Shown here in pieces: positions 51,046 to 54,816 of a DNA stretch of 64,000 bases; the stretch's first letter is position 1, and each line of letters opens with the position of its first letter. The stretch spans positions 1,116,001 to 1,180,000 of the forward strand of contig NZ_RQWN01000002.1 in NCBI RefSeq assembly GCF_003977755.1, given 5' to 3'. This DNA comes from Haloterrigena salifodinae. GTDB lineage: Archaea > Halobacteriota > Halobacteria > Halobacteriales > Natrialbaceae. Made by a program: the position numbers and the translations under genes. The notes under the pieces are model-generated. The model was not told the DNA's origin and searched no databases. It saw nothing but the letters and a program-made list of their open reading frames with translations.

Positions 51046-54000
51046 ATGGGAACGGGTCTCGATATCGGACCGGGAGCGCTCAGGGTGGCCGCGGAACCGG
51101 CCGGGGACGCGATCGAATCGGTACCGCCGGTCGTCGTTCCAGTCGACGACGCCGCGGCGAGCGATCTGACGGATGACGGACTGTCCGTGGAGCGAGAGGG
51201 AACGACCTACGCAGTCGGCGAGACAGCCGAGGCGGTCGCCGACGCGACCGGCACGGCGCCCGAGTCGCTGTTTTCCAACGGTGTCTTGGCGGTCGACGGC
51301 TACGCAGAATCGGCTCTCGAGGCGCTGCTCGAGGACGCGCTCGGGAACGGCGCGAGCGACGGGCGACTCTGCTATACGACGCCGGGGACGCTGGTCGGCG
51401 CCACGGAGCCGACCGCGGCCCACCGGGAGATTGTCGAGTCGATCGTCGCCGAGCACGCGGCCGATATCACGCCGATCAGCAGGGGATTCGCCGTCGTCTA
51501 CGACCAGCTGGCCGAGGACAACTACACCGGGCTCGGCATCTGCATCGGGCCGCAGACGACCGACGTCGCGCTGGCCTACTACGGCGTGCCCGCGTTGGCG
51601 TTCTCGCTCGCGAAGGGCAGCGAGTGGATCGTCGAGCGAGCGGCGGCCGATACCGGCCGCGAGCCGGCGGAGATCGCGGCCGTCCGCGAGGAGTTCGCGC
51701 TCGATCCCGACGCCGCGTCGGGCGAGGTCGAGAGCGCGCTCGCGCAGGCCCACGACGCGCTGATCGGCGACCTCGCCGACGCAATCGCGGCCGAGGCCGA
51801 CGAGAACGACGTGCAACAGGGGCTGGCCGTCCCGATCGCAGTCGCCGGCGACGGCGCGATCGAGGGCCTCGAGTTCCTGCTTGGCGGGCGGTTCGACGCG
51901 GCGGCGCTCCCGTTCTCGGTTCGCGGGGTGCGGCTGGCCGACGACCCCGCCGGGAGCGCCGCCCGCGGTGCGCTCGCGGCGGCCGAAGACAACGTCGACG
52001 CCTACGAGGACGTCACCTGGTCGACGGCCGAAACCAATGGGGACGGCGACGAGTCGAACGGGGCTTCGGCCGGCGCCGACGCGAGCAGATCGACGACGCT
52101 CACCTTCGACGGCGATCTGGGCGGCGGGGCCGGCGTGGACCGCGACCCCGCTGACGACGCCATCGAGCAGCTGTTCGACCGGCTCGCCGACCGCGACGAG
52201 GAGATCGAATCGGTCCGAACCGACCTCGAGTCGGCGTTCGATGACATCGCGTACGTCGAGGAGCGGACGGCCGAGGTCGAGACGGTCGCGGAGCTCGACG
52301 AGCGCCTCGAGGCGTTCGCCAACGACCTGCGCGACCTCGAAGCCGAGAGCGAGACGCACGCGAGCGACGAAACGGTCGACGAACTGGGGGACGATCTCGA
52401 GGCGCTCTCGACGGCCTTCGAGGACTTAGAGACCGACGTCGACGGCCTCGCGACCGAGCTGGAAGCCGACCTCGAGGCGGTCGAATCCGGGTTGGCGGAC
52501 GATATCGACGAGTTGGAAGCCGAGCTAGCGGATGACCTCGACGAACTGGAGTCCGGACTCGAGACCGACCTCGAGACGCTGTCGGAGACGGCGGCAGACG
52601 AACGTGCGGCCCTCGAGGAGCGAATCGAGGAGCTCGCCGACGATCTCGAGGGGGTTTCGGACAGAACGAACTCGCTGGACGAGCGACTCGAGACGATCCG
52701 AACGGGCCTAGAGCGGCTCGAGTCGGAGACCGCGTCCGCGGCCGACCTCGAGGACGCGATCGCGACGATCGATCGCCTGGACGAGACGCTCGCGGCGATC
52801 GACGAGGACGTCGACCGGATCGACGATCGTCTCGCTGCTCTGGACGACGGCCTCGAGGAGCAGGCGACCCGGATCGACGGCGTTGATAATCGACTCGACG
52901 ATGTTGACGACCGGCTCGCTGACCACGTCGAACAAACTGATGACGACCTCGAGGAATTCGCGGCAGATATCGAGGCCGTTGAGGCGACGGTCGACGACGA
53001 ACTGGCTGCCGTCGACGCCGATCTCGAGGACGTGGCAGCGACGATCGAGGACGAAATCGACGCGCTCGAGGGTGAACTCGAGTCGGTCGACGACCGGATC
53101 AGCGACGCCGATGGCCGGATCAGCGATGTCGACGACCGGCTTGAGGACGTGATCGATGACGTCGACGATCGAATTCAGGGCATCGACGATCGGCTCGAGG
53201 CGACCGACGACCGCGTCGGGACGGTGGCCGACGACGTCACCGACGCCCGCGAGACGCTGGGTGCCCGAGCCGACGATCTGGAGGCGCGCCTGGAGAGCGC
53301 TCGGGAGACGATCGGGGACGTCGAGGCGACGGCGGCCGGCGACGAACGGGTCGACGCCGTCGAAGACGACCTCGAAGAACTCGAAGACAGTGTCACGAGC
53401 GTCTCGGAGCGACTCGAGGACCTCGCGGAGCGGACGGCGCTCGAGGATGCGGTCACCGACCTCGCGACCGACCTCGACGCCGCCGAGAGCGAACTCGCCG
53501 ATCTCGGCGAGAAGTTCGACTTGCTCGAAGTGGAGGTCGACGACCGGTTCGAGGCGACGACCGCCGAATTCGAAACGACGGCGACCGAACTCGAGGCGCG
53601 ACTCGACGACCGGACGGACGACGTCGAGACGAGACTCGAGGACGCAGTCGGATCGATCGAAGACGATTTCGCGACGCTCGAGTCGCGCCTCGATCGCCTC
53701 GACGAAGCGGCTCCGGAGGATGACGCGGTCGCCGAACTGTCCGATTCGCTCGCGGAGACGCGGGAGACGGTCGAATCGGCGACCGCGGAGGTCGACGCCC
53801 TCGGAGACGACCTCGACGCGCTCGAGACGACGCTGACGGAGCGAATCGACTCGGTCGAGACGGAACTCGACGACATCGCGTCCGACCTCCGATCGACGGT
53901 GGCTGAAGAGACCGACGCGCTCGCGGACCGTCTCGAGCGGGTCGACGATCGCTCGGCGACCGTCGAGAGCCGACTCGAGGACGTTACCGAAACCGTCGAC

Positions 54001-54816
54001 GCCGACGTCGAACGAATCTCGGCGCGCGTCTCGGAATTCGACGACCGCCTCGAGTCCCTCGACGAGACGGCCGCGTCCGCGGACGCCGTCGCGACGCTCG
54101 AGGAGTCGATCGACGCCGTCGAGGGAGAGCTCGAAACGCTTCGGGCGGCGTCCGACGAAACGCGCGAGGCGATCGACGCCCTCGAGGCCGACCGCGAGGC
54201 GGCGCTGGAGGACGTCGCGGATCGCGTCGACGATCTCGAGGGCCAGACCGACGCGCTTGCGAGCCGAGTCGATCGACTCGACGACCGCTCGACGCGAGTC
54301 GACGACCTGGCCGACCGCGCGGACGAACTCGATGACCGGACGAGCGAGCACGGGTCGCGGCTCGATCGACAGGCCGATTCGCTCGCGGCCCACGACGACC
54401 GCCTTGAGTCGGTCGCGAGCGAGGTCGACGACCTCGCAGCAGCCCTCGACGCGACGCCAGACGAGACGGTCCTCGAGTCGACGGACGATCGACTGGACGC
54501 GCTCGCGGATCAGGTGGACGGACTCGAGTCGGCGCTCGACGATGTGGAGTCGTCGACGGCCCGCGGAGAGCGACTCGAGGCGCTACAGACGGACGTCGCC
54601 GAGTTGCGAGAGCGCGTCGAGACGGAAGCGCAATCCCACGAACGGGACGAGTCGTCCGGAACGGCGGAGACGGTCGTTCCGATCGCTGCCGGCGGTGGCG
54701 GCGCCGGCGTCGTCGCCGGCGGCTCGCTCGCGCTCGCGGGCGACGGGACGATCGGCGCCGTCGCCGTCGTGTTCGGCGTCGTCCTGATCGCCGGCGCTAT
54801 CGCGGCGAGTCGGTAA
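51046..54816 (+). CDS. Actin/MreB-fold N-terminus with giant coiled coil and C-terminal membrane anchor
   Basis: The 1256-residue protein has three parts. Residues 1-330 look like the actin/Hsp70 ATPase fold: LDIGPGALRVA (phosphate loop 1, D6), GLGICIGPQTTDVALAYYG (phosphate loop 2, where the usual Asp is Cys) and AVAGDGAIEGLEFLLGGRF (adenosine loop). Residues about 365-1200 are nearly unbroken heptads such as ADLEDVAATIEDEIDALEGE, very rich in D, E, L and R. The last 47 residues hold one or two hydrophobic segments (GAVAVVFGVVLIAGAIAASR). It is thus a candidate membrane-tethered cytoskeletal or scaffold protein; function is unknown. Confidence 0.7.
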   Translation: MGTGLDIGPGALRVAAEPAGDAIESVPPVVVPVDDAAASDLTDDGLSVEREGTTYAVGETAEAVADATGTAPESLFSNGVLAVDGYAESALEALLEDALGNGASDGRLCYTTPGTLVGATEPTAAHREIVESIVAEHAADITPISRGFAVVYDQLAEDNYTGLGICIGPQTTDVALAYYGVPALAFSLAKGSEWIVERAAADTGREPAEIAAVREEFALDPDAASGEVESALAQAHDALIGDLADAIAAEADENDVQQGLAVPIAVAGDGAIEGLEFLLGGRFDAAALPFSVRGVRLADDPAGSAARGALAAAEDNVDAYEDVTWSTAETNGDGDESNGASAGADASRSTTLTFDGDLGGGAGVDRDPADDAIEQLFDRLADRDEEIESVRTDLESAFDDIAYVEERTAEVETVAELDERLEAFANDLRDLEAESETHASDETVDELGDDLEALSTAFEDLETDVDGLATELEADLEAVESGLADDIDELEAELADDLDELESGLETDLETLSETAADERAALEERIEELADDLEGVSDRTNSLDERLETIRTGLERLESETASAADLEDAIATIDRLDETLAAIDEDVDRIDDRLAALDDGLEEQATRIDGVDNRLDDVDDRLADHVEQTDDDLEEFAADIEAVEATVDDELAAVDADLEDVAATIEDEIDALEGELESVDDRISDADGRISDVDDRLEDVIDDVDDRIQGIDDRLEATDDRVGTVADDVTDARETLGARADDLEARLESARETIGDVEATAAGDERVDAVEDDLEELEDSVTSVSERLEDLAERTALEDAVTDLATDLDAAESELADLGEKFDLLEVEVDDRFEATTAEFETTATELEARLDDRTDDVETRLEDAVGSIEDDFATLESRLDRLDEAAPEDDAVAELSDSLAETRETVESATAEVDALGDDLDALETTLTERIDSVETELDDIASDLRSTVAEETDALADRLERVDDRSATVESRLEDVTETVDADVERISARVSEFDDRLESLDETAASADAVATLEESIDAVEGELETLRAASDETREAIDALEADREAALEDVADRVDDLEGQTDALASRVDRLDDRSTRVDDLADRADELDDRTSEHGSRLDRQADSLAAHDDRLESVASEVDDLAAALDATPDETVLESTDDRLDALADQVDGLESALDDVESSTARGERLEALQTDVAELRERVETEAQSHERDESSGTAETVVPIAAGGGGAGVVAGGSLALAGDGTIGAVAVVFGVVLIAGAIAASR

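What the first reader, a model, noticed from the sequence alone, without database searches (positions are those of the whole stretch)
51046..54816. Actin-fold ATPase fused to a giant coiled coil and a membrane tail
One 1256-residue protein combines an actin/MreB-like N-terminus, over 800 residues of coiled coil and a C-terminal hydrophobic anchor. A fully extended coil of that length would reach about 120 nm (0.15 nm per residue). The Asp of phosphate loop 2 is replaced by Cys in GICIGPQTTD, so ATP hydrolysis may be slow or absent. I know of no described archaeal protein with this layout; it could be a membrane-tethered filament, a chromosome or cell-shape tether, or a mechanical spacer.
Basis: partly seen in the sequence, partly recalled or inferred. 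Interest (0 to 1): 0.75.

Follow-up and report, generated by a model that had tools for sequence, protein, structure and literature searches.

The report
Membrane-tethered coiled-coil volactin paralogue
A salt-loving archaeon and most of its family (Natrialbaceae) carry, besides the ordinary actin-like protein volactin, a second volactin that has lost its main catalytic residue and is fused to a very long rod ending in a membrane hairpin, which suggests a built-in membrane tether for an archaeal actin skeleton.

Summary
Window 51046-54816 (+) encodes 1256 residues: an actin fold (1-321), an acidic linker, about 820 residues of heptad coiled coil and a C-terminal hydrophobic hairpin. The actin part is a full-length match to Pfam Volactin (PF25216, E 1e-116), the family of the Haloferax disk-shape actin. 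The genome also has the ordinary short volactin (about 341 aa). Haloarchaea show two paralogue groups: a nearly frozen short form, and a fast-evolving long form that always has actin + coil + hairpin. The long form is common in Natrialbaceae, has divergent relatives in three other families, and was never found without the short form. The better clue is the catalytic Glu (CcMreB E140): Glu in 37/37 short forms, acidic in 0/46 long forms (33 Lys/Arg). Best explanation: a membrane-anchored, probably hydrolysis-poor volactin paralogue that tethers, nucleates or caps volactin filaments at the membrane through a long segmented rod. Anatomy, fold and conservation are shown; the link to short volactin and the biochemistry are inferred. 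No description of this layout was found in the open-access library.

The parts
51046..54816 (+). Whole gene: volactin-family actin fused to coiled coil and membrane hairpin, 1256 aa, stop codon included
   Evidence: same layout in all complete long-form proteins examined
51046..51984 (+). Actin-fold domain, aa 1-313 (Pfam PF25216 Volactin, full length; AlphaFold2 fold to about aa 321)
51055..51087 (+). Phosphate-1 loop GLDIGPGALRV (aa 4-14); Asp6 in 45/46 long forms, Gly8 in 40/46
51481..51483 (+). Arg146, at the place of the catalytic Glu (CcMreB E140); Glu in 37/37 short volactins, never acidic in 46 long forms
   Evidence: role of E140 from PMC4051119
51535..51564 (+). Phosphate-2 loop GICIGPQTTD (aa 164-173): Cys166 at the Asp position, Thr171 at CcMreB T167
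51838..51858 (+). Adenosine motif AVAGDGA (aa 265-271); Gly268 invariant in 46/46 long forms
52009..52161 (+). Acidic, Gly/Ser-rich linker (aa 322-372), poorly conserved; pLDDT under 50 at its start
52162..54627 (+). Segmented coiled coil, aa 373-1194 (822 residues), D/E-rich, period about 3.5, stutters and hinge-like breaks
54673..54738 (+). Hydrophobic segment 1 of hairpin, aa 1210-1231 (VVPIAAGGGGAGVVAGGSLALA)
54751..54807 (+). Hydrophobic segment 2 of hairpin, about aa 1236-1254 (best 19-residue hydropathy 2.67)

Best explanation
The gene is the long paralogue of volactin. Shown: an actin fold with nucleotide-pocket motifs, a long segmented coiled coil, a conserved C-terminal hydrophobic hairpin, and a fixed order of these parts across the family. 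Inferred: the hairpin sits in the cell membrane with both ends in the cytoplasm; the coil pairs in parallel (Arg enriched at g, Glu at e) into a rod of up to about 120 nm with hinges; the actin domain binds ATP but hydrolyses it slowly or not at all because the catalytic Glu is gone. Most likely it works as a membrane-bound adaptor: its actin head joins the end (or side) of filaments of the ordinary short volactin and nucleates, caps or stabilises them, while the rod and hairpin hold that point to the membrane over a long, flexible reach. This would be analogous to Spiroplasma MreB3, a low-ATPase paralogue proposed to anchor other MreBs to the membrane.
For: Fold and family. Paralogue pair in the same genome. 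Layout constant in all complete long forms examined (actin, D/E-rich coil, glycine-rich hairpin). Every genome with an unambiguous long form in the samples also has the short form. Catalytic Glu position: Glu in 37/37 short, 0/46 long acidic. E140 and T167 position the attacking water in CcMreB (PMC4051119); Spiroplasma MreB3, lacking the E...T-X-[D/E] motif, releases phosphate very slowly yet forms filaments and is proposed as a membrane anchor (PMC9597168). Haloferax volactin filaments cross the cytoplasm and touch the membrane only at their tips (PMC10869688), so an end-anchoring factor is expected. The long head evolves fast (72% identity in a pair of genomes whose short forms are about 97% identical) but under purifying selection, as expected for a head with fewer contacts than a filament subunit.
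Against: No direct evidence that long and short forms touch; their genes are not adjacent and the long gene's neighbours (MOSC-domain protein, MFS transporter) look unrelated. About a third of Natrialbaceae and many other haloarchaea have only the short form, so tip anchoring, if general, cannot depend on the long form; the short gene has its own conserved upstream membrane protein gene (DUF7139) in 30/30 loci. Short volactin itself lacks the Thr and the acidic residue of the E...T-X-[D/E] motif, so the ATPase contrast is a matter of degree. Long forms probably descend from one ancestor, so 46 sequences are not 46 independent losses.
Confidence: 0.42

Rival explanations
1. The long form makes its own membrane-bound filaments or lattice, independent of short volactin: a static scaffold whose heads polymerise with bound ATP and whose coils space the filament from the membrane.
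For: Complete actin domain with phosphate-1 and adenosine motifs kept; Spiroplasma MreB3 forms filaments despite lacking the hydrolysis motif (PMC9597168); purifying selection on the head.
Against: Head sequences diverge to about 44-50% within one family while the filament-forming short form stays about 92-99% identical; filament subunits are usually more constrained.
Confidence: 0.25
2. A long-range tether between the membrane and something other than an actin filament (nucleoid, division machinery, another membrane), with the actin fold used as a nucleotide-switched binding head.
For: Rod of up to about 120 nm; catalytic Glu lost; coil length varies several-fold between species, more like a spacer than a precise ruler.
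Against: No DNA-binding or other partner domain was found; similarity to SMC and Rad50 models covers only the coil and stays far below their cut-offs.
Confidence: 0.18
3. It takes over the DNA-partitioning job of salactin in lineages that lack salactin.
For: Salactin is absent from all 37 Natrialbaceae genomes of the first sample and present in other families; no genome in the 194-genome sample has both.
Against: The pattern follows clades, so it may be one event; Natrialbaceae without the long form also lack salactin; one genome outside that sample (G038) has a divergent long form and salactin.
Confidence: 0.08
4. Artefact: a chance fusion, misassembly or pseudogene.
For: None found.
Against: Same layout in dozens of species including complete chromosomes; purifying selection.
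Confidence: 0.01

Closest known systems
Volactin (HVO_2015, VolA; Pfam PF25216), Haloferax volcanii
   Same: Same family; full-length domain match, E 1e-116
   Different: Short volactin is about 341 aa with no coil or membrane hairpin, keeps the catalytic Glu and is nearly frozen in sequence; the long form is about 30-37% identical to it
Salactin (VNG0153C; Pfam PF25229), Halobacterium salinarum
   Same: Haloarchaeal actin-fold protein; also lacks the phosphate-2 Asp (Asn)
   Different: Different family (no coil, no hairpin; disordered N-terminal tail), measured ATPase; absent from Natrialbaceae sampled
Spiroplasma MreB3
   Same: Actin-family paralogue with a degenerate hydrolysis motif, proposed as membrane anchor of other MreBs
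   Different: Bacterial MreB; anchored by an amphipathic helix, no coiled coil; unrelated origin of the anchor
MamK / MreB / BeeR (bacterial actins)
   Same: Closest solved folds (VIA Z 24-27)
   Different: About 17-21% identity, no such coil; catalytic Glu present in MreB and MamK
RodZ, formins, spectrin-type linkers (own knowledge)
   Same: Join an actin-type filament to the membrane or to a nucleation site
   Different: They bind actins through other domains; here the actin fold itself is part of the linker

Membership tests
Volactin family (PF25216) | Full-length match of the actin domain above the family's cut-off (35 bits) | tested here: met
   389.9 bits, profile 1-321 of 321
Volactin family (PF25216) | Groups with volactin paralogues; long and short forms separate on one branch | tested here: met
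   99/96 support; unrooted, salactins not in that tree
Volactin proper (VolA orthologue) | Short single-domain protein that keeps the catalytic Glu | tested here: not met
   1256 aa, Arg146 at that place; the true orthologue is a separate gene
Volactin proper (VolA orthologue) | Dynamic filaments and a role in disk formation | not testable with these tools
   needs imaging and deletion
Actin superfamily | Two-lobed actin fold with phosphate-1, phosphate-2 and adenosine motifs | tested here: met
   AlphaFold2 pLDDT 89; Z 24-27 to MamK, MreB, actin; D6, G8, T172, G268 kept in most long forms
MreB-type ATP hydrolysis (E...T-X-[D/E] motif) | Catalytic Glu, Thr and acidic residue | tested here: not met
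   E140 position never acidic in 46; T167 position Thr/Ser in 39/46; E169 position acidic in 2/46, one of them this protein
Salactin (PF25229) | Match to the salactin family | tested here: inconclusive
   A real salactin matches PF25229 at E 5e-186; the window protein's best 25 Pfam matches do not include it, but 52 weaker ones were not shown
SMC / Rad50 / ASRP coiled-coil proteins | Score over the curated cut-off | tested here: not met
   All far below cut-off, coil only, e.g. ASRP 122 of 300 bits

The most novel reading that the evidence does not exclude
Natrialbaceae and some relatives have a two-actin system in which a dynamic short volactin is anchored or capped at the membrane by a catalytically degenerate volactin with its own built-in rod and membrane hairpin: an actin that has become its own linker.
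Probability: 0.35. Interest if true: 0.8.

Novelty: new variant of a known kind. Interest (0 to 1): 0.6.

Why it matters
How archaeal actin filaments are attached to membranes is, as far as I could find, unknown; Haloferax volactin touches the membrane only by its tips, with no identified anchor. A paralogue that carries its own membrane anchor and has lost the main catalytic residue gives a concrete candidate in Natrialbaceae, a family with culturable members, and an example of an actin turned into a structural linker.

Tried and rejected
Asp-to-Cys as sign of a dead ATPase: rejected as not diagnostic, since characterised haloarchaeal actins lack the Asp too. Gene neighbourhood as a clue: the upstream MOSC-domain gene and downstream MFS gene look like vertical inheritance; ORF clustering was noisy because wrong-frame ORFs are long in GC-rich DNA. 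SMC, Rad50, EzrA, apolipoprotein and similar hits to the coil: generic heptad similarity. Single-sequence search of PDB: no match; profiles were needed. Hairpin as a shared membrane module in the same genome: only itself and two weak matches. Viral copies: none found. In-frame stop reported in many salactins: in the three checked it is simply the natural end of the gene. The review PMC10955848 is not held, so it could not be checked.

Full report
What is there. The ORF at 51046-54816 (+) is exact: 1256 residues, ATG start, an in-frame stop four codons upstream. It behaves as coding DNA under purifying selection: dN/dS of the actin part is 0.27-0.36 against six orthologues; the linker is mostly weakly constrained, the coil intermediate.

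The actin domain. Pfam Volactin PF25216 covers residues 1-313 over its whole length, E 1.4e-116. A single-sequence PDB search finds nothing, but family profiles reach MreB, FtsA, MamK and BeeR. AlphaFold2 gives pLDDT 89 and pTM 0.90. Foldseek's best hit is the MamK filament (E 7e-13, TM 0.72); VIA-align gives Z 27.1 for MamK (291 residues, 3.1 A), 25.1 for BeeR, and about 24-25 for MreB and actin.

Two paralogues. The same genome has an ordinary volactin of about 341 aa. Among 61 genomes (the window's own and 60 relatives), nearly all Natrialbaceae have the short form, about 89-99% identical to this genome's, while long forms are about 44-93% identical to the window's domain within the family. 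In an evenly drawn sample of 194 genomes of the order, long forms occur in 29 by my count: 24 of 39 in the window's family, 5 in two other families; a divergent relative (834-aa open frame) occurs in a further family (G038, L059). All these genomes have the short form. The tree separates long and short forms on one branch, 99/96. The two most divergent long forms (L053, L057) sit on long branches, so their exact place is unsure.

Layout. All complete long proteins examined have actin domain, D/E-rich heptad coil and a C-terminal hydrophobic hairpin, in nearly all with a glycine-rich first segment (AGGGGAGVVAGG-like) and a strongly hydrophobic second one. The region between head and hairpin varies from about 100 to over 850 residues (different trims were used), which speaks for a spacer and against a fixed ruler. 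The window's coil spans about 373-1194. A heptad model trained on 41 long-form proteins puts Leu/Val/Ile at a and d, Glu/Asp at e and Arg at g, the pattern of attractive g-e' pairs in parallel coils, and finds about 27 register breaks in the window protein, roughly half of them stutters that a continuous coil tolerates; others coincide with T/A-rich motifs and look like hinges. The 120 nm figure is thus an upper limit. The break count depends on the model's settings.

Active site. HMMER alignments of the family profile to Caulobacter MreB and to MamK agree that CcMreB E140 corresponds to Glu in short volactin and to R146 here. Counts: Glu in 37/37 short; in 46 distinct long domains R17, K16, T5, Q4, S2, A1, P1. 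CcMreB T167 is Thr/Ser in 39/46 long and Met in short; the phosphate-2 Asp is Cys in 35/46 long and Ser in short; E169 is Ser in 30/46 long (Asp173 in this protein) and Asn in short. E140 and T167 hold the attacking water in MreB filaments (PMC4051119); in Spiroplasma MreBs loss of the E...T-X-[D/E] motif gives very slow phosphate release while filaments still form, and MreB3, which lacks it, is proposed as a membrane anchor (PMC9597168). Salactin, whose phosphate-2 Asp is Asn, has measured ATPase activity (PMC10746226). Hence the Cys alone says little; the missing Glu says more. Both volactin groups are degenerate compared with MreB, so slow hydrolysis in the long form is a prediction, not a result.

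How it may work. Haloferax volactin filaments span the cytoplasm and touch the membrane only by their tips, and rapidly grow and shrink (PMC10869688). A membrane-bound, slow-hydrolysing volactin head on a flexible rod is well suited to nucleate, cap or hold such tips. This step is inference: there is no interaction data, the genes are apart, and many haloarchaea manage without the long form. The short gene has its own conserved upstream membrane protein gene, DUF7139, in 30 of 30 loci, a rival anchor in all these species.

Relation to salactin. Salactin was found in 68 of the 194 genomes and in none of the 29 with a long volactin, nor in any of 37 Natrialbaceae of the first sample. The pattern follows families, so it may be a single historical event; G038, outside that sample, has both salactin and a divergent long form.

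Literature. Searches of open-access papers for volactin, salactin, haloarchaeal actins and coiled-coil actins found no description of this layout. Most subscription papers and bioRxiv preprints are not covered.

Verdict. A real, conserved, apparently undescribed architecture within a known family: new variant of a known kind.

Noticed in passing
L001 479-1399 and the same place in L003-L031 (next to short volactin; outside the window): A multi-pass membrane protein gene (DUF7139, PF23600) lies directly upstream of the short volactin gene in 30 of 30 loci: a candidate membrane partner of volactin.
   Followed up: partly
G000-G036 (Natrialbaceae); Salactin is absent from every Natrialbaceae genome sampled, although described as broadly conserved across Haloarchaea.
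   Followed up: partly
L059 7522-10023 (G038): Very divergent actin-like head with coil and two C-terminal hydrophobic segments, 834 aa open frame, in another family whose genome also has salactin.
   Followed up: partly
L058 7166-7624 (G049) and G172:C4:12424-13352: Volactin fragments: a 153-aa open frame matching only the C-terminal part, and two adjacent partial frames beside two intact copies; possibly decayed copies.
   Followed up: no
short volactin, all loci: Short volactin has Met at the place of MreB's catalytic Thr167 and Asn at E169, fixed in 37/37, so its ATPase chemistry may be unusual too.
   Followed up: partly
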